Shown: positions 20,609 to 53,930 of the stretch, piece by piece
Layout: every line of letters begins with the position of its first letter
Numbering within the stretch: position 1 is the stretch's first letter
Assembly (NCBI RefSeq): GCF_003946175.1
Contig: NZ_RHOK01000017.1
Span: 1 to 56,542 of the forward strand
Source of the DNA: Lacticaseibacillus suibinensis
Lineage (GTDB): Bacteria > Bacillota > Bacilli > Lactobacillales > Lactobacillaceae
Direction of reading: 5' to 3'
Length of the DNA: 56,542 nt
Program-made: the position numbers and the translations under genes
Notes under the pieces: generated by a model
What the model saw: only the letters and a program-made list of their open reading frames with translations
Told to the model about the DNA's origin: nothing
The model's database searches: none

Positions 20609-20680
20609 TTGGCAAAAAAGTGATTGAAACATAATTTGAGATGAAGATGGGCGCACGACTATTCCGGAACAGTACGAGCC

Positions 20681-20780
20681 AAAATGCGACGCCCTAGCCG
20701 TATAAGCCAAAGGGCCTGCAAAACCTAAGTTCAGGTTTCACAGGCCCTTTGGCTTATACTCTGGGCTAAAACCGCATTTT
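20681..20780. repeat. Intergenic hairpin repeat, family 2 (copy A)
   Basis: A perfect 19 bp stem (20700-20718 with 20741-20759; arm GTATAAGCCAAAGGGCCTG) is nested inside GCCC/GGGC and the outer arms AAAATGCG (20681) / CGCATTTT (20773). The loop again pairs (AAACCT/AGGTTT). Copy B at 44605 shares GAACAG-ACGAGCCAAAAT before the stem and GGCCTGCAAA...AAGTTC...ACAGGCC in the head. Both copies lie between converging genes, so a role as a two-way transcript end is possible. Confidence 0.75.
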
Positions 20781-20798
20781 GTCTCAGCCTCTGGGTGG

Positions 20799-22142
20799 TT
20801 ATTTGGTTTTGATGGTGAAATGCAAATCATTCATGTTCGTATCCTGAATAATCGTGTTGATGTAGCGTTTCAGGGAGGCGGTTTTGGCGTCCACCTGATA
20901 ACCGCGGGTTTGCTTAAGGGCTTTGACTTCAGCATCCGAGATGTGATCTTGACCGGTGAAAAAGCGCCAGTTGAGTTCACCCATGAAGTGCATGCCGGCG
21001 TCTAAGTCAGCTTCGGTGATGCCAGGGCGATTGTAGAGGCTTTGAACCGCCAGCCCTTCACCGTTTTGCAGGAACAGTTTTTTCAAGTAACGCTGGTAGT
21101 GCGCCAGTTCCGGGTTCTGCTTTTGCTTAGCCGTCAGTACCGGGCTGAGGTCGGCCTGCTTGCGGGTGTAGGTCAGGCCCTTGCTGGTGAGTTGAACCAC
21201 GCCATAACCGGCAGGCGAGATTGAATAGGAGCCATTGACCACTTCGACGGGCTCACCATCACCGCCGGCCATCACGTCTTGGGCGTGGATGTGGCCAGAG
21301 AACAGCACCGGTACTTGATAACGGGTGAGCAATTTACGCAGTGCTTTGGCATTGTTCAACACATAGCCCGTCGACACGACATGGTTATGTTGGTAAAGGT
21401 TGTGGTGCATGAACACCAGGCTGGTGCGACCGGCCTTTTTGCCCGCGGCCAGCTGCGTTTTCAGCCAGCTCATGGTGGCTGGTTTCAGTTCACCGCCAGT
21501 GTTCGGGTTGCGATTGGAAGGCTGAATGGTGTAGATGTTGGAATCCAGCATAATCAGTTGATAGTTCGCATTCAGGGCAATCGTGTAGCTCAGTGAAGCC
21601 GAATCTTCATCAATTTCGCTTTGATAGCCATCACTAAAAATGCGGCGCCACTCGGTGGGGCTGATTTGCGGCACCTTGTACTGATTTTTGCCTTTGTACT
21701 TCCGGGCCCAGCCGTCGTAGATATCATGATTGCCGGGGATGGCCAGCACGTGAATGCCTGCTGCTTGCAAGGCCGCTAGCCGCTTGGCTAGGTCCTGCGC
21801 ACTGGCGCGTTCACCATTAAAGGTGACATCGCCAGTCAAAATCACGGCGGTCGGCCGCGGCTTGGCGGTTAACGCTGCGTGCACGAGAGCCTTGATGGCG
21901 ACGGGTTGATGCTGGATATCTTTGCCTGCCGCTGACTGCTTGATTTCCGTGAAGGCCTCGCCTTGATCATGCAGCTGCGGGGTGATGAAATGCGAATCCG
22001 ACAGCACCCACAGCACCGGGGTTTTACTGGTGGTGAGTTCATGGCTAGCGCCTTGCCGATGCGGCGCCGCAACCGTCAGGCCGGCAGCGATGACCGCGAG
22101 TAAGATCAACGCGGCGAGTACTTGTCCCAAGCGTTTTAACAT
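20799..22142 (-). CDS. Calcineurin-like metallophosphoesterase, membrane-anchored/secreted
   Basis: The 447-residue protein starts at ATG 22142 behind GAGGAG. Residues 1-25 form a signal or membrane anchor (LAALILLAVIAAGLTVAA). The metal-binding motifs follow in order: SDSH (D-x-H, about 48-51), GDVTFNGE, PGNHD, MHHN and GHIHAQD. The C-terminal ~130 residues are helical. It hydrolyses phosphate esters outside the membrane. The substrate is unknown, and close relatives are annotated only as phosphohydrolases. The next gene downstream on this strand is far away, so it is probably monocistronic. Confidence 0.87.
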   Translation of the reverse strand: MLKRLGQVLAALILLAVIAAGLTVAAPHRQGASHELTTSKTPVLWVLSDSHFITPQLHDQGEAFTEIKQSAAGKDIQHQPVAIKALVHAALTAKPRPTAVILTGDVTFNGERASAQDLAKRLAALQAAGIHVLAIPGNHDIYDGWARKYKGKNQYKVPQISPTEWRRIFSDGYQSEIDEDSASLSYTIALNANYQLIMLDSNIYTIQPSNRNPNTGGELKPATMSWLKTQLAAGKKAGRTSLVFMHHNLYQHNHVVSTGYVLNNAKALRKLLTRYQVPVLFSGHIHAQDVMAGGDGEPVEVVNGSYSISPAGYGVVQLTSKGLTYTRKQADLSPVLTAKQKQNPELAHYQRYLKKLFLQNGEGLAVQSLYNRPGITEADLDAGMHFMGELNWRFFTGQDHISDAEVKALKQTRGYQVDAKTASLKRYINTIIQDTNMNDLHFTIKTK

Positions 22143-27831: not shown

Positions 27832-27932
27832 AGCTTGGATTGACCAGCTCGTGAAGCGCTTAGCCCACAAAAAAAGGGCTGTGATCAATGTCACAGCCCC
27901 TAAATTCACTCCGAATGTTTCAGCAGAGTTAC

Positions 27933-28041
27933 GTGCCAAAAGGCCGGAGCCGAGCAGCTAGCTACGCCATCCACCGAGTCCAGAGTTCGGACTTGGTGGA
28001 TGGCTAGGCTACCTGTCGGCTCCAAACCCGCCTTTTGTCAC
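27933..28041. repeat. Divergent member of the family-1 structured repeat
   Basis: The core TAGCTACGCC and GGCTAGGCTA of family 1 is present. The terminal hairpin CCATCCACCGAGTCC / GGACTTGGTGGATGG and the side arms GGAGCCGA/TCGGCTCC and CAAAAGGC/GCCTTTTG enclose it. It lacks the flanking GCAGCCT boxes of the other copies. It lies between the phnD upstream region and the 3' end of the TetR gene. Confidence 0.7.
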
Positions 28042-28070
28042 AGCCCTTAAGGCTGACAGTTTGAAGGTGG

Positions 28071-36969: not shown

Positions 36970-38430
36970 TTAAAGCGCGGCGATAAACCGCCCGAAGGCA
37001 GCTTGGCCTGCTTCATCGCGTTTGAACACGCCGGCGTCTTCCAGCACGCGGGCGAACACGCGGCCCACGGCTTCGTTCAGTTGCGCCGTGGCATTGGTTT
37101 CTGTCCAGGTGAACTGGGCCTGCAACTGCTTGGCCCAAGGCAGGTGAGAAGGCTCAATCTGATTGGGCTGACCAAGCAGGTATTTTTTGACTTCAGTCAG
37201 TTCCGCTGCCAGCCGGGCAGGCAGCACGGCGAGGCCCATGACTTCAATCAAGCCGATGTTTTCACGCTTGATGTGCTGCACATCCTGGTGCGGGTGGAAA
37301 ATGCCATCAGGATAGTCAGCGGAAGTTTGGTTGTCGCGCAGCACCAGATCCAGCTGGTAGGCGTCACCGACCCGGCGGGCAATCGGGGTGACGGTGTGAT
37401 GCGGCGTCCCATCGGTGAAGGCGCGCACGGCCACACTGTCATCACTGTAAGTCGCCCAAGTGGCCCGAATGTGTTCGGCTGCTTCGGCCAGCTGTTCCCG
37501 GTTGGCGGAGGTTAAGCGAATCACACTCATTGGCCAGCGCACAACGCCAGCTTCTACAGCCTCGTAGTCAGGCAAACTGATGGCTTTTTCCACTGGGGCT
37601 TTGGCCATGGCGAAAGTGTGGTGACCGCCTTGGTAGTGTTCATGGCTGAGCATTGAGCCGCCAACAATCGGCAAATCGGCATTCGAGCCAACGAAGTAGG
37701 TCGGTAGCATGTGGACAATCGCCAGTAGGTTGGTGAAAGTGGTGCGGTTGATGTGCATCGGTTCATGCACGCTGTCGAGGAAAATGGCGTGTTCTGGGAA
37801 GTAAGCATAAGGTGAATACTGGAAGCCCCAAGTTTGGCCATTGAGCTGAAAGCGCACAATGCGGTGGTTGCCCCGGGCGGGATAGTCGGCGCGGCCGCGG
37901 TAGCCTTCATTTTCTAGGCAAAGCTGGCACAGAGGGTAACCTAGCGCCTTCACTTTGGCAGCGGCGGCGATGTCTTTGGGATCCTTTTCCGGTTTGGACA
38001 AGTTAATGGTGATTTCGAGTTCACCATAAGGCGTCTGGGCTGGGAATTGGATGTTTTTAGCAATCGCCCGGGTTTGAATGTAATTATTCGCCCGCGACAG
38101 CTGGTAAAACCAATCCGTCGCTGTGCTGGGACTGGTGGCATAAGCGCCCCAGAACTGGCGGTTGACGGAACTTGGCAACGGGGTGGCCAGGGCCATCAGT
38201 TCCGCCTCCAGAATCTGTTTGGCCGCAGTAGTGTCTACGCACACGCCGTTTTGCACCGCGGCTTGGACAAGGAGGTCGAGGTTATCTAGCCCGGCTTCTG
38301 CGCCGGCGAGACTTTGCGCTTCGTCGCCCACCAAAGCCAAGGTCCGGTTGGTCAAATAAACTTGATCCAGCGCGGTGTAGTCGTGGTTCAGCTCCAAGCA
38401 CCAGTTGACATGACGTTCAACGGCTTTCAC
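36970..38430 (-). CDS. galT: UDP-glucose-hexose-1-phosphate uridylyltransferase, family 2
   Basis: The 486-residue enzyme is the Firmicute-type GalT of the Leloir pathway, exchanging UMP between UDP-glucose and galactose-1-phosphate. Recognisable pieces are the N-terminal [22 protein letters not shown], the [20 protein letters not shown] segment with the active-site histidines, and [30 protein letters not shown] 38430 overlaps the galE stop by 4 bp, so the two are translated together. It is the last gene of the gal operon and is followed by a strong terminator. Confidence 0.95.
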
Positions 38431-39422
38431 AGGCGATCACCAAAGCCTTCCGGATGATTCTCATGCCAGTTCCAGGCATCGCCGATGATTTTTTCGACAT
38501 CATCGAACTGCGGCTGCCAGCCCAGCACACTGCGGGCCTTGTCAGAGGCGGCAATCAGCGTGCTTGGATCGCCAGGGCGGCGCGGCCCGATTTTGGCGGG
38601 AATTTCCTGGCCGGTGACTTTGCGGGCGGCGTTGAGAATTTCCAGGTTGGAGAAGCCCGTGGCCGAGCCAATGTTGAAGGCGTCGCTGGCATTGCCGGCG
38701 CGCAGGTAGTTCAGCGCCAAGATGTGGGCATCCGCTAAGTCCACCACATGGACATAGTCGCGAACGTTGGTGCCGTCTTTGGTCGGGTAATCATCGCCAA
38801 AGATTTGCAGATTGTCGCGCGTCCCAGCCGCGGCTTGTAAAATAATTGGAATCAGATGCGTTTCCGGATGGTGATCCTCCCCGATGCTGCCATCAGGCAT
38901 GGCACCGGCGACATTGAAGTAGCGCAAGGCGACAAAGTGAATGCCGTAAGCGACATCGGCCCACTTGATGATTTTTTCCATGGCCAGTTTGGACTCACCA
39001 TACGGGTTGGTTGGCACTTGGGGGTCGGATTCCTTGATTGGAATCTGCTTCGGTTCGCCGTAAGTGGCAGCGGTGGAGGAGAAGACAATCTTATCGATGC
39101 CGAATTGCTTCATTGCTTCCAGCAACGTGATCATGCCGCCGGTATTATTGTCAAAATACTTCAGCGGATCCTGCATCGATTCTGGCACGATGGAGAAGGC
39201 AGCAAAATGGATAATCGCGTCGATTTTTTCGGTGCTAAAGACCTGACTCAAGAAATGGTAATCGCGAATGTCGCCTTGGTAAAAGCGTGCTTTTTTGTCA
39301 ATGGCGCGTTCATGCCCGGTGATGAGATTGTCCAAAACCACCACATCCTCGCCAGCCTTAACCAGCTGAGCGACGGTGTGGGAGCCGATATAGCCGGCCC
39401 CGCCTAAAACTGCAATTGTCAT
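38427..39422 (-). CDS. galE: UDP-glucose 4-epimerase
   Basis: The 331-residue NAD-dependent epimerase interconverts UDP-galactose and UDP-glucose. It has the glycine motif GGAGYIGSH (7-15), the serine of [11 protein letters not shown], the YxxxK catalytic pair in [12 protein letters not shown], and the typical [20 protein letters not shown] 39422 follows AAAAGGAG. Upstream lies a 639 bp array of structured repeats that separates it from galK within the same transcription direction. Confidence 0.96.
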
Positions 39423-39479
39423 ATGATAAGCTCTCCTTTTTGAGTGATGAAACTGTGGGAAGTACGTTGGTTTGGCCTC

Positions 39480-40118
39480 GCAGCCGGTAGTTGCACTACA
39501 GGTGGCTAACGCCGGCGTGAATAGCTACGCCCAAGGCCTCACCGGCAAAAAACGCCGGCAATGCCTTGAGCTAGGCTATTCCACCGGCTAAAACCAGCCA
39601 CCTTTCGTAGCCTGTAGGTGCGCTCCGAGTGGCTAACGCCCGAGTAGTTAGCTACGCCTGAGGTCTCGCCGGCAAAGTGCGCCAGCAATACCTCAGGCTA
39701 GGCTAGCTGTCGGGCTAAGAACAGCCACCCTCCGCAGCCTGTAGTTGCGCTCCGGCGGGCAACGCGGGCGTGGCTAGCTACGCTCCGGTCCTTGCAGCCG
39801 AAGAACGGCTTCAATGCCCAGAGCTAGGCTAGCCATCCCGCTAAATGCGCCCGCCTCCGCAGCCTGTAGTTGCGCTCCGAGTGGCTAACGCCCGAGCAGC
39901 TAGCTACGCTCCGGTCCTTGCAGCCGAAGAACGGCTTCAATGCCCAGAGCTAGGCTAGCTGTCGGGCTAAGAACAGCCACTCTCCGCAGCCTGTAGTTGC
40001 GCTCCGCCGAGCGACGGGGGAGCAGGTAGCTACGCATAAGGCCTCACCGGCAGAATGCGCCGGTAATGCCTTACGCTAGGCTACCCGTCCCCCTAAGACC
40101 GCTCGGCTCCGCAGCCTG
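39480..40118. repeat. Tandem array of five structured repeats (family 1) between galK and galE
   Basis: Units start at GCAGCC (or GTAGCC) 39480, 39607, 39734, 39859 and 39986 and measure 125-127 bp; a final GCAGCCTG ends at 40118, five bases from the galK stop. Each unit folds as one long interrupted hairpin. The outer arms are GGTGGCT/AGCCACC in unit 1, GGCGGGC/GCCCGCC in unit 3, AGTGGCT/AGCCACT in unit 4 and GCCGAGCG/CGCTCGGC in unit 5. The second arms are GCCGG/CCGGC, GCGGG/CCCGC, GCCCGA/TCGGGC and GGGGGA/TCCCCC. Arms change while pairing is kept. Constant single-stranded or loop motifs are TTGCGCTCCG, AACG, TAGCTACGC, GCTAGGCTA and CTAA. Orientation is opposite to the gal genes. Nothing codes for protein. 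Confidence 0.93.
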
Positions 40119-40122
40119 GTTG

Positions 40123-41289
40123 TTAGTCAATCACCTTGGGTCCATCCGCAATATTAGCGATATAGAAGTCAGCGGCGTACCCGATGGTGTCCTGGTAAAC
40201 ATCGCCGACTGCTTTAGTGAAGGCTGGGACTTGGTCTTTGGCGACTAAAGCAATGGCGCAGCCGCCAAAGCCGGCGCCGGTCATGCGGGCGCCGAGGACG
40301 CCGGGCTGCTTAACGGCGGTTTGAACCAAGGTGTCCAGTTCTTTGCCAGTTACCTCATAATCATACGCCAGCGATACGCCAGAGGCACTCATCAGCCGGC
40401 CAAATGCCGCGAGGTCGCCGGCTTTAAGTGCCGCTGCGGCTTTCAAGGTGCGCTGGTTTTCAAAAACGGCGTGCCGCGCGCGGCGAATCAGGGTCGGGTC
40501 TTCAATCAGGTAGGTGTACTGGTCGAAGGTATCAATATCCAGTTCGCCCAAGGTTTTGATGTCCAGCTTGGCTTGCAGGCGGGCCACGGCTGCTTCGCAT
40601 TCAGAGCGGCGTTCGTTGTACTTGGAGTCGGCAAGTTCGCGGCGCTTGTTGGTGTTCATGATGACCACCACATTGTCGCCCATGGCCAGTGGTAAGGATT
40701 CGTATTCCAAGGTGCTGGCATCTAGCAAGGTGGCGTGGTTGGCCCGGCCCATGCCGATGGCGAATTGATCCATGATGCCGGAGTTGACACCGATGAATTC
40801 ATTTTCAGTTTTTTGGCCCATTTTGATGAGTTCAAGCATGTCATGGCCTAAATTGAAAGTCGTATTCAAAATGGTCCCAGTCAGCAGCTCCAGTGAGGCG
40901 GAAGAGGAGAGGCCGGCGCCGTTTGGCAGGTCGCCTTTGATGTATAAATCTAGGCCTTGGTCGAAGGTAGCGCCCGCTTTGAGCAGCTGCTGGGCCATGC
41001 CTTTGAAGTAATCGCTCCACTTACCGTCTTTGGCGCCGGTGATTTCAGCCAGGGGCAGGTCAATGATGCCAATATTTTCAAAGTTGGCAGAGTAGAGCCG
41101 GAACTTGGCCTCATCATTCGAGCCAACCGCGGCGTAGGTGCCTAAACTAATGGCACAAGGGAAAACGTGGCCGCCATTATAGTCCGTGTGCTCGCCGATC
41201 AGATTAATGCGGCCTGGTGCAAAATAGACATGGGCGGCGTCGTGCCCGAATACCTGCTTGAAGCCTTGCTTAAGTGCTGCTGTGTCCAT
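40123..41289 (-). CDS. galK: Galactokinase
   Basis: The 388-residue GHMP kinase phosphorylates galactose at C1. It has the galactokinase signature [22 protein letters not shown] (about 26-47), the ATP-binding [16 protein letters not shown] (about 113-128) and the third motif [17 protein letters not shown]. Start ATG 41289 has GGAGG upstream. It is preceded by galR with a 29 bp gap and probably shares its transcript. The structured repeat array begins five bases after its stop. Confidence 0.96.
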
Positions 41290-46312: not shown

Positions 46313-46606
46313 GGGATCCATCTGGCTAAAAGCGTCCCAGCTTCGCAGCCTATCCAGTTGCGCTCCGCTGGGGCAACGCCGGAGTGAATAGCTACGCACC
46401 AAGCCTCGCCGCCAAAAAGCGGCGGCAATGCTTGGCGCTAGGCTATTCATCCGGCTAAAAGCGTCCCAGCTCCGCAGCCTATCCAGTTGCGCTCAGCGCG
46501 CCAACGCCGAAGTGGCTAGCTACGCTTAATGCCTTGCCGGCAAAATCAGCCGGCAAGGCATTAAGCTAGGCTATCCATCCGGCTAAGACCGGCGCGTTTC
46601 GCAGCC
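46313..46606. repeat. Family-1 structured repeats: one partial and two complete units
   Basis: GCAGCC boxes lie at 46345, 46474 and 46601, giving units of 129 and 127 bp. A partial unit's 3' arm (CCGGCTAAAAGCGTCCCAGC-like) lies in 46313-46344. Unit A arms are GCTGGG/CCCAGC and GCCGGA/TCCGGC; unit B arms are GCGCGCC/GGCGCG and GCCG/CGGC. TAGCTACGC and GCTAGGCTA are conserved in both. The last box (GCAGCCTA) overlaps the stop codon of the oxidoreductase gene (46606-46608, minus strand). Confidence 0.9.
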
Positions 46607-47358
46607 TACCGGTGTTTATGTCTTACAAATGTGGCGTAATGCAAAATTCCGGCGAGGAGGACGAAGAAGATGAGGACGAAGCTGGCGTAGCGGGTCCAGA
46701 AGTTCATGGTCGTGGCTGGAATCAAGAGCTGGATGCCCATGGTGGCTAGGGCCATGATGGCAATCATGCCGAATAAGAGCAAATAGCGTTTCATGGTTTC
46801 GTTGTCCCTTCTGACTTTGGCTGGGAGTTTGGCGGCAAGGGCTTGAGCCTGGGCAATTTTGGCTTCAGGTACGGCATGAGCATTCCAAGTCCCAGGCAAA
46901 ATGAGCTCGCCGGCTTTGCGCAGACCGGCCGCGGCCATGGCTTTATCCAGCATGGTCAGGCAAGCGTCGGTTTGGTGCGTAAAGGTGTTTTCTAAGCCGC
47001 TGGCAAAACACGAGGTGATGGTGAGGTAAACCTTGCCTTTGTATTTGCCAGGGAGGGTGTCACCTTGGTGCGTCATCCGCGTTAGGCGCGGTCGCAAGCA
47101 GTCTAAGGCTTGCTTAAGCGTACCGGCCACCGTGCCATAATAAGTCGGGCTGGCCAGGACCCAGACGTCGGCAGCCGCGAGCTTTTCTTCCAATGCGTCT
47201 AACGCCGGGTTGGCTTCGCCGCGGCGATCAGGTCGGATTGTGAGTTGATTAAGGTCGATGAATTCATGGGTGCCTTCGCAGGCCTCCAGCAAGGCGTGGG
47301 TCAGTTTGGCGGTCAGGCCTTGCGGGTCTTGACCGCCGAACAGGGCAATGGTGTGCAA
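46606..47358 (-). CDS. Flavodoxin-like NAD(P)H oxidoreductase fused to a two-helix membrane tail
   Basis: The likely start is TTG 47358 after AGAGGTGAG. Residues 1-185 form a flavodoxin-like NADPH-dependent FMN/quinone reductase domain: HTIALFGGQDPQGLTAKL at the start, the FMN-binding VWVLASPTYYGTVAGTLKQALD, and GKVYLTITSCFASG. The last 62 residues (from MKRYLLLFGMIAIMAL) hold two membrane helices and a basic end, which is unusual for this family. An internal ATG at 46794 with a weak upstream GGGA could also start the tail as a separate protein. Substrate unknown. Confidence 0.8.
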   Translation of the reverse strand: MHTIALFGGQDPQGLTAKLTHALLEACEGTHEFIDLNQLTIRPDRRGEANPALDALEEKLAAADVWVLASPTYYGTVAGTLKQALDCLRPRLTRMTHQGDTLPGKYKGKVYLTITSCFASGLENTFTHQTDACLTMLDKAMAAAGLRKAGELILPGTWNAHAVPEAKIAQAQALAAKLPAKVRRDNETMKRYLLLFGMIAIMALATMGIQLLIPATTMNFWTRYASFVLIFFVLLAGILHYATFVRHKHR

Positions 47359-50676: not shown

Positions 50677-50741
50677 ATCAAGACGCCTCCGGTTTTCACC
50701 AGCATACCGCAACCACGTGAATTCGGGTATAATTTAAATCA

Positions 50742-51007
50742 GGCTGCGGAGTGAGGCCGCCTTTAGCCTGACGATTAACCTAGCTGCGAGCATTGAAGCC
50801 GGTCTTAGGCTTCGAGGCTTGCAGCGTAGCTAATCGGTCAGGCGTTGGCCTCGCGGAGCGCAACTAAATCAGGCTGCGGAGTGAGGCCGGCTTTAGCCTG
50901 ACGATTAGCCTAGCTGCGAGCATTGAAGCCGGTCTTAGGCTTCGAGGCTTGCAGCGTAGCTAATCGGTCAGGCGTTGGCCTCGCGGAGCGCAACTAAATC
51001 AGGCGGC
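50742..51007. repeat. Family-1 structured repeats, reverse orientation, two near-identical units
   Basis: Complements of GCAGCC lie at 50742 and 50872 and a variant (GCCGCC) at 51002, giving two 130 bp units that differ at only a couple of positions. On the complementary strand the arms are GAGGCC/GGCCTC, GCCTGA/TCAGGC and GATTAGCTA/TAGGTTAATC, around the constant TAGCTACGC. They lie in the 398 bp gap between the divergent GH31 and rluD-like genes. Confidence 0.92.
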
Positions 51008-53521: not shown

Positions 53522-53606
53522 GATTCCAGGAGAAATCGGTTCACTACTTCATTGGCGACTGGAGCTGCTGTGTGGACGGTAAATATTTGAGTCAACCCCA
53601 ACAGTA

Positions 53607-53762
53607 GGGCCGGCCAGGTGGAGCAGAAAAGGGCTCAGTGGTGAAATTGTTCTTAGCCAGTGGTTTTTACTGGCTTAGAACAAGCCGCGACTTTGAGACG
53701 CAAAGCGGCTCAAAGCGCTGGCCACCACGTTCCAGCCCTTTGCTGCGGAGCCTGGCCGGCCC
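53607..53762. ncRNA. Multi-arm structured element, unknown
   Basis: A perfect 12 bp outer stem, GGGCCGGCCAGG (53607-53618) with CCTGGCCGGCCC (53751-53762), encloses AAGGGCT/AGCCCTT (53629-53635, 53734-53740). Inside are a 15 bp hairpin TTGTTCTTAGCCAGT/ACTGGCTTAGAACAA with one T-T mismatch (53647-53683) and a second hairpin, CCGC-CTTTG/CAAAG-CGG (53685-53708). It has no coding frame. It lies between a terminator and a family-1 repeat. It could be a non-coding RNA or an immobile repeat; no promoter is obvious. Confidence 0.65.
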
Positions 53763-53787
53763 GGCAGCATTGCGCACGCCTTGCTCC

Positions 53788-53918
53788 GCTGCCTAGTTGC
53801 GCTGCGCAAGGCCAACGCCTGAGCGATTAGCTACGCCAGCTGGCCCGCCACCAAAGAGCGGTGGCAAACCATCTGGCTAGGCTACTCGTCAGGCTAAGAC
53901 CGGCCTTGTTCCGCTGCC
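53788..53918. repeat. Family-1 structured repeat, single unit
   Basis: GCTGCC boxes at 53788 and 53913 bound a 125 bp unit. Arms are CAAGGCC/GGCCTTG and GCCTGA/TCAGGC, with the conserved AACG, TAGCTACGCC and GGCTAGGCTA. The terminal hairpin is GCCACC/GGTGGC. The box reads GCTGCC instead of GCAGCC at both ends. Confidence 0.88.
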
Positions 53919-53930
53919 TTTGATAAATAT

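What the first reader, a model, noticed from the sequence alone, without database searches (positions are those of the whole stretch)
39480..40118. Five-unit structured repeat array with compensatory changes inside the gal operon
Units of 125-127 bp differ in at least two successive arms, yet both strands of each arm change together (outer arms GGTGGCT/AGCCACC, GGCGGGC/GCCCGCC, GCCGAGCG/CGCTCGGC; second arms GCCGG/CCGGC, GCGGG/CCCGC, GGGGGA/TCCCCC). Short motifs in between stay constant. Such covariation argues for selection on a folded RNA or cruciform DNA. I know of no named element that matches. It separates galK from galE-galT on the presumed transcript.
Basis: seen in the sequence. Interest (0 to 1): 0.82.

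Follow-up and report, generated by a model that had tools for sequence, protein, structure and literature searches.

The report
Mobile folded repeat of lactic-acid bacteria
The five hairpin repeats between the galactose genes belong to a scattered family of short DNA elements in lactic-acid bacteria that keep their folded shape while most of their letters change, and that seem to copy themselves around the genome by an unknown route.

Summary
The galK-galE array (39479-40118) holds five head-to-tail units of 125-128 bp. A covariance model from 26 units finds at least 137 copies in this genome, matches in 21 of 30 genus genomes and in 39 of 301 family genomes, 10 of 40 genera. A tree-aware covariation test of 44 pairs significant. 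Bases of the internal loops stay fixed, and in variable pairs G-T exceeds A-C 118:33, so one particular strand is the folded one.

It is not gal-specific and not consistently in mRNA sense (31 of 80 arrays lie in the local coding sense). No Rfam family reaches its threshold. Units 91-98% alike sit at unrelated loci; at orthologous loci unit number and identity turn over.

Best reading: a non-autonomous, ERIC/MITE-like mobile repeat, selected for a single-strand fold. The mobiliser is unknown: neither Y1 transposase nor reverse transcriptase follows copy number, and transposition itself was not shown. A related array occurs in one Bacilli genome of another family.

The parts
39993..40117 (-). 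gal array, unit 1 (5'-most on the gal strand; 5 nt after the galK stop)
   Evidence: R1 128.0 bits; context
39866..39992 (-). gal array, unit 2
   Evidence: R1 126.4 bits
39741..39865 (-). gal array, unit 3 (0.98 alike to a gal-array unit of G025)
   Evidence: R1 123.2 bits
39614..39740 (-). gal array, unit 4 (0.95 alike to the other gal-array unit of G025)
   Evidence: R1 126.7 bits
39486..39613 (-). gal array, unit 5 (3'-most full unit)
   Evidence: R1 119.6 bits
39474..39485 (-). short remnant of a further unit's 5' end (GGCTGCGAGG) beyond unit 5
   Evidence: sequence
40123..41289 (-). galK, upstream of the array on the presumed transcript
   Evidence: Pfam GalKase_gal_bdg, GHMP kinase domains
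38427..39422 (-). galE, downstream of the array
   Evidence: Pfam Epimerase
36970..38430 (-). galT
   Evidence: Pfam GalP_UDP_transf N and C domains
46353..46607 (-). second array of the family in the window, 2 units; begins at the stop codon of the gene at 46606-47358
   Evidence: R1 140.4 and 125.7 bits
50741..50998 (+). third array, 2 units
   Evidence: R1 126.8 and 132.8 bits
53792..53919 (-). single unit; G025 keeps only a 5' remnant at this place
   Evidence: R1 122.5 bits; alignment
27924..28046 (-). divergent unit, short-core variant with GGGGCTGTGAC ends
   Evidence: R1 68.4 bits
20668..20790 (-). divergent unit 8 nt after the stop of the gene at 20799-22142
   Evidence: R1 43.7 bits

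Best explanation
The array is one site of a non-autonomous dispersed repeat of Lactobacillaceae. Its mobile unit is a 123-128 nt imperfect hairpin running from AGGCTGCGGAG to GCGCAACTA. What is kept is the fold of one strand: four helices free to change by compensation, separated by internal loops of fixed sequence and joined by a conserved basal stem. I infer that an enzyme recognises this folded single strand, most likely as single-stranded DNA, and copies or recombines units into intergenic places; the fold is then kept by selection on mobility, not by a role in galactose metabolism. Once a unit is in place, head-to-tail arrays grow and shrink by exchange between neighbouring units at the short direct repeats of their junctions. 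Shown by computation: the family, its covariation, the strand asymmetry, spread of unit sequences to unrelated loci, and unit gain or loss at orthologous loci. Inferred: the single-stranded DNA substrate, the trans-acting enzyme, and transposition as the route of spread.
For: At least 137 copies in one genome, 85 arrays all outside called genes. Model matches in all 53 Lactobacillaceae loci and in 0 of 27 other loci of the loci fetched by pattern, and in 0 of 80 viral loci fetched by the same pattern. Covariation. Strand asymmetry. Five pairs of units 0.91-0.98 alike whose flanks on both sides are unrelated, with the likeness running from end to end of the unit; an orthologous control pair has like flanks. 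Unit number differs at orthologous loci (gal 5 against 2; 46353 2 against 1); of 32 correctly paired loci 12 have no unit above 0.80 alike although the flanks are 89-99% alike. Clean unit differences bounded by direct repeats of 13, 5 and 10 bp. G010 has no unit at the place of L179:3501. No consistent orientation to genes: 31 sense, 49 antisense of 80.
Against: No mobilising gene was found: Y1_Tnp is absent from G010, G011 and G018, which have 110 or more matches, and RVT_1 is absent from G011, G018 and G025; other transposase and recombinase families were not searched. The direct repeats at unit differences vary in length (13, 5, 10 bp), so there is no constant target duplication, and simple deletion or unequal exchange explains them equally well. 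Likeness at unrelated loci could be ectopic gene conversion, because both loci of each pair already carry a unit. Two of the emptiest-looking G025 sites turned out to be remnants, and the one empty site (G010) is too diverged to show an insertion point. The G-T excess could in part be a strand-biased mutation pattern.
Confidence: 0.58

Rival explanations
1. A host-functional RNA element: the units are transcribed in mRNA leaders, spacers or 3' ends and act by their fold (transcript stability, processing, termination or protein binding), and this keeps the fold.
For: Strong covariation and fixed internal loops. G-T tolerated more than A-C on one strand, as in RNA. In gal, and in 23 of 30 cases with a same-strand 5' neighbour, the unit starts within 30 nt of a stop codon, so read-through transcripts would hold the folding strand. 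Passages of PMC3446304 report that 40-51% of intergenic bcr repeats of Bacillus cereus are in mRNAs.
Against: Units lie antisense to the local coding majority in 49 of 80 arrays. No conserved promoter: left flanks share nothing (4 of 85 resemble another), and no promoter- or terminator-like site was found in 39380-40200. Copy number runs from 0 to over 110 among species of one genus, and unit identity turns over at orthologous loci.
Confidence: 0.2
2. An old DNA palindrome whose arms are kept complementary by the replication machinery (template switching between arms, quasi-palindrome correction), without selection on the fold; arrays change by slippage.
For: Paired changes would arise without selection; units at orthologous loci differ by whole-unit or internal deletions typical of hairpins.
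Against: Correction should erase mismatches, yet the unpaired internal-loop bases are 95-100% fixed, and G-T pairs are nearly invariant at three helix positions (102, 105 and 98 of 111 units). G-T exceeds A-C. It does not explain spread to unrelated loci.
Confidence: 0.12
3. A folded recombination cassette: each unit is both cargo and recombination site (attC-like in logic), inserted and excised at its own ends by a site-specific recombinase that binds the folded strand.
For: Whole units are gained or lost at junctions of the form GCAAC..AGGC. Polarity: a 5'-partial unit follows 45 of 85 arrays, a 3'-end remnant precedes 5 of 85 (background 4% and 2%). Arrays that mix strands always have the two 5' ends outwards (5 of 5 here, 3 of 3 in G025, where the three are orthologues of own ones). 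The same polar remnants are seen by eye in the three G583 arrays.
Against: No recombinase was identified or searched for; the attC core sites as I recall them are not present at the ends; no gradient of unit quality along arrays (5'-most unit better in 15, 3'-most in 16).
Confidence: 0.1

Closest known systems
ERIC / IRU repeats of enterobacteria
   Same: About the same size (127 bp in PMC2759123, seen in a search listing), intergenic, tens to hundreds of copies, one long stem-loop, no coding capacity; varied copy number between taxa (passages of PMC10969869; PMC2267715).
   Different: Here most helix positions change by compensation while internal loops are fixed, units form head-to-tail arrays with turnover at orthologous sites, and the host group is Lactobacillaceae. 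No sequence comparison with ERIC was made beyond the Rfam scans.
bcr1-bcr18 repeats of the Bacillus cereus group
   Same: Intergenic, structured, MITE-like repeats of a Gram-positive group, partly in UTRs (passages of PMC3446304).
   Different: Not compared by sequence; tandem arrays and strand-specific covariation as found here are not mentioned in the passages seen. The bcr1 paper itself is not held.
REP / REPIN elements with RAYT transposases
   Same: Dispersed, extragenic, folding, also found in doublets with inverted order and in tandem arrays (passages of PMC3116915).
   Different: REPs are 20-40 bp (abstract of PMC3733652) and tied to a RAYT gene; here the unit is 123-128 nt and genomes with over 110 matches have no Y1_Tnp gene.
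EFAR repeats of Enterococcus (Efa-1 in PMC2267715 is probably the same, by recall)
   Same: Intergenic structured repeats of a related order member; 163 bp, 65 copies; EFAR named as a MITE in a passage of PMC3733652.
   Different: Predicted as a pair of adjacent stem-loops, not one long hairpin; no sequence compared here.
Integron attC sites
   Same: Folded strand is what counts, not its sequence; arrays with head-to-tail order (recalled).
   Different: No cassette genes, no integrase searched or found, recalled core sites absent.

Membership tests
Any Rfam 15 family | Match above the family's gathering score | tested here: not met
   0 in the window; lax search of 39400-40140 gives three miRNA models, best E 0.11 and 21.6 bits against a gathering score of 100; 12 loci of other species give only tRNAs and one L21 leader; 3 loci of G583 give none
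REP/REPIN-RAYT | Cognate Y1 (RAYT) transposase in the genome | tested here: not met
   own genome 2 partial or broken Y1_Tnp matches; none in G004, G007, G010, G011, G012, G014, G018 despite 10 to 116 matches of the element, while G006, G022 and G028 have Y1_Tnp and no element
REP/REPIN-RAYT | Palindrome of 20-40 bp | tested here: not met
   126 of 138 units are 120-129 nt
MITE | Dispersed, short, without its own transposase gene | tested here: met
   85 arrays, 126 of 138 units 120-129 nt, none inside a called gene
MITE | Terminal inverted repeats | tested here: inconclusive
   ends form a conserved imperfect basal stem, 96.8% of cells paired in helix 1
MITE | Target-site duplication of constant length | tested here: not met
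   three clean unit differences bounded by direct repeats of 13, 5 and 10 bp, which may be deletions
MITE | Autonomous relative with matching ends and a transposase | not tested
   only Y1_Tnp and RVT_1 were searched; no search for ISs with these ends
SINE-like retro-element | Reverse transcriptase in genomes with many copies | tested here: not met
   RVT_1 absent in G007, G011, G013, G018, G025 and G027, which have 42 to 115 matches
Conserved structured RNA | Significant covariation of helices | tested here: met
   25 of 44 pairs at E<0.05; does not tell RNA from single-stranded DNA
Conserved structured RNA | Transcription in the folding sense | not testable with these tools
   no RNA-seq; orientation is against it for most copies
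Integron attC site | Integron integrase and cassette genes | not tested
   no integrase search; units follow one another with 0-6 nt between them and no genes

The most novel reading that the evidence does not exclude
A superfamily of self-mobile 'hairpin cassettes' in Bacilli: each 120-128 nt unit travels as one folded DNA strand recognised by shape and by its fixed internal loops, is added to and removed from polar arrays whose 5' ends always face outwards, and uses a mobiliser that is neither a Y1 transposase nor a reverse transcriptase.
Probability: 0.22. Interest if true: 0.82.

Novelty: new variant of a known kind. Interest (0 to 1): 0.6.

Why it matters
Small structured repeats such as ERIC have been known for decades without a known mobiliser. 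Here the record is unusually rich: over a hundred diverged copies in one genome, a strand-specific covariation signal, unit exchange between sister species, and matches from several genera. It gives a defined unit and defined ends for a search for the enzyme. It also bears on RNA discovery: strong covariation alone would make this a candidate riboregulator, although orientation and turnover point to a mobile DNA element. Food and probiotic species lie in the genera concerned, so arrays of this kind could serve as strain markers.

Tried and rejected
Gal-specific regulator: rejected, the family is genome-wide. Named RNA family: none at threshold. RAYT/REPIN and reverse-transcriptase mobilisation: not borne out by the genus profile. 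Plasmid or phage carriage: no blastn match of the gal array in the plasmid and phage collections; 111 pattern stretches in viral contigs, of which 80 were held and tested, gave no model match. CRISPR-like ageing along the array: no gradient (15 against 16). Cruciform of both strands: disfavoured by the G-T excess. Clean empty sites in G025: two candidates proved to be remnants. Literature: eight searches of an open-licence library gave no description in the listings seen; subscription papers are not covered. Passages only were read in PMC11234323, PMC2267715, PMC3716772, PMC3446304, PMC3733652, PMC10969869 and PMC3116915.

Rows dropped and errors of mine: one search used the 150 best of 177 matches and dropped 12 overlapping antisense rows, leaving 138 units in 85 arrays; the covariation test used the best 111 rows. 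Five mixed-strand arrays were left out of orientation counts. In one search, 35 of the 38 locus pairs were compared; three (L200_3501, L242_8219, window_46353) were set against the wrong array of the same stretch and are not counted; one search shows window_46353 correctly and one search shows L242_8219. G025 stretches were chosen around G025's own matches, so they cannot show how many arrays are shared. Copy counts are capped by the number of candidates scored (150, 116 and 11 per genome). Genes near arrays come from a simple gene caller of mine.

Full report
What is there. Between galK (40123-41289, -) and galE (38427-39422, -), with galT following and a LacI-type regulator gene upstream (Pfam), lie five head-to-tail units of 125-128 bp at 39486-40117, read on the gal strand from 40117 to 39486, plus a short 5' remnant of a further unit. 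All five units fold well beyond shuffles on either strand.

It is a family, not a gal feature. A core pattern (GCCTAGC, gap, GCGTAGCTA) occurs 70 times in the own genome against 0 for the reversed pattern. A covariance model R1 of 26 units finds 137 matches at E<=0.01, with only 150 of 1292 candidates scored, so the number is a lower bound; two weaker matches in the window are not in that list. After fetching 64 stretches around the matches, 138 units fall into 85 arrays: 49 single, 25 of two, 6 of three, 4 of four, and the gal array of five. None of the 85 overlaps a gene called by my simple gene caller. In the window there are arrays at 46353-46607, 50741-50998 and 53792-53919 and divergent units at 27924-28046 and 20668-20790.

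Distribution. Matches occur in 21 of 30 genus genomes, from 1 to the ceiling of 116 that were scored, and are absent from 9; in 39 of 301 family genomes, 10 of 40 genera, with 11 candidates scored per genome and strict filters. In 298 other genomes of the phylum one has matches: G583, class Bacilli, another family. Its three loci hold units of 122-123 nt head to tail with the same layout and partly different fixed motifs, again followed by a 5'-partial unit. Whether G583 units are homologous or only alike is not settled; the bit scores are 24 to 52.

Fold and strand. On 26 units 27 of 44 pairs show changes on both sides and 97.2% of cells are standard pairs; controls are far lower. On 111 distinct units a test in the manner of R-scape of 44 annotated pairs and 8 other column pairs significant, 7 of these 8 next to a pair. 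Unpaired positions of the internal loops are nearly fixed: TTA 99%, CTA 99-100%, GTA 96-98%, GT 96-99%, and the basal GA(G) and C positions 95-99%. In 32 variable pairs that are not fixed G-T, G-T is seen 118 times and A-C 33 times, against 387 and 323 expected from column composition; G-T leads in 23 pairs and A-C in 4. Three further positions are nearly invariant G-T (102, 105 and 98 of 111). So the strand with CCTAGC...GCGTAGC is the one that folds, as RNA or as single-stranded DNA; a strand-biased mutation pattern could contribute.

Context and polarity. Of 80 arrays of one orientation, 31 lie in the local coding sense and 49 against it. The 5' edge lies within 30 nt of the stop codon of a same-strand gene in 23 of 30 cases, whereas the 3' edge lies within 30 nt of the stop of an opposing gene in 3 of 42. 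A 5'-partial unit follows 45 of 85 arrays (strict motif 29 of 85) and a 3'-end remnant precedes 5 of 85 (strict 3 of 85); chance is about 4% and 2% per window. Mixed arrays have their 5' ends outwards in 5 of 5 cases here and 3 of 3 in G025, the latter orthologous to own ones. No promoter- or terminator-like site was found around the gal array.

Dynamics. G025 is the nearest relative found; its contig lengths equal those of Lacticaseibacillus suilingensis ZW152 records, so I take it to be that genome. At gal it has two units against five here; the middle pair of this genome is 96.5% alike to the G025 pair, above the 88-91% of the surroundings. Of 85 own arrays 38 could be paired with a G025 stretch; 35 were compared and 32 correctly paired. 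In 19 the best unit match is 0.85 or more, in one 0.81, in 12 below 0.80 although flanks are 89-99% alike. Alignments show that part of this comes from different deletions in a longer ancestral array (L232, L210). Unit differences are bounded by direct repeats of 13 bp (L194_9218), 5 bp (L210) and 10 bp (L231_11394). The places 53792 and L227 hold only 5' remnants in G025, and G010 has nothing at L179:3501. In the other direction, five pairs of units 0.91-0.98 alike lie at loci with unrelated flanks on both sides (own L201:3665 and G025 L275:3981 0.98; L234:3649 and window 50871 0.94; L210:3501 and G025 L303:4032 0.93; L219:3501 and G025 L289:4178 0.92; L205:847 and G025 L281:4095 0.91), against a median of 0.69 between own units of different arrays. 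That is the best evidence for spread; since both members already are units, ectopic conversion is not excluded.

Mobiliser. Y1_Tnp (RAYT, IS200/IS605) occurs in 13 of 30 genus genomes and RVT_1 in 11 of 30, without relation to copy number. The own genome has two partial or broken Y1_Tnp matches and one partial RVT_1 match. Other transposases and tyrosine recombinases were not searched. The gal array has no blastn match in the plasmid and phage collections.

Verdict. The covariation claim holds; the gal interpretation does not. The most likely account is a non-autonomous mobile repeat of the ERIC/MITE kind whose folded single strand is what selection sees; host RNA function and DNA-level arm correction are the main rivals. 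It is a new family by the searches made here, and a variant of a known kind by its strand-specific covariation, polar arrays and unit turnover.

Noticed in passing
G583 loci L429:3998-4490, L430:4030-4147 and neighbour, L431:3877-4140: A Bacilli genome of another family carries arrays of 122-123-nt units of the same layout with other fixed motifs (GAAAAGCGGAA ... TGGAGCTGGACA) and 5'-partial units at their 3' ends; possibly a wide superfamily.
   Followed up: partly
window 53601-53767 and the right flanks of about nine of 85 arrays (for example L184, L185, L191, L194, L227): A second dispersed repeat of about 160 bp (..GGGCTGGAACGTGGTGGCCAGCGCTTTGAGCC..) lies on the 3' side of these arrays; 23 rows match it in G025. 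Not identified.
   Followed up: no
window 27924-28046 and 20668-20790; L194:2774, L220:1238, L230:291: Short-core variant of the unit with GGGGCTGTGAC ends, at 27924 and L220:1238 followed by a terminator-like hairpin built on the same letters.
   Followed up: no
L181:3501, L209:3501, L214:3501, L229:3501, L231:11394, L242:8346: Long variants of 173-175 nt that share the base of the hairpin but have an extra segment in the upper arm.
   Followed up: no
L241 left flank, L228 and L181 left flanks: Internally deleted units that keep only the two ends, consistent with deletion of the hairpin between short direct repeats.
   Followed up: no
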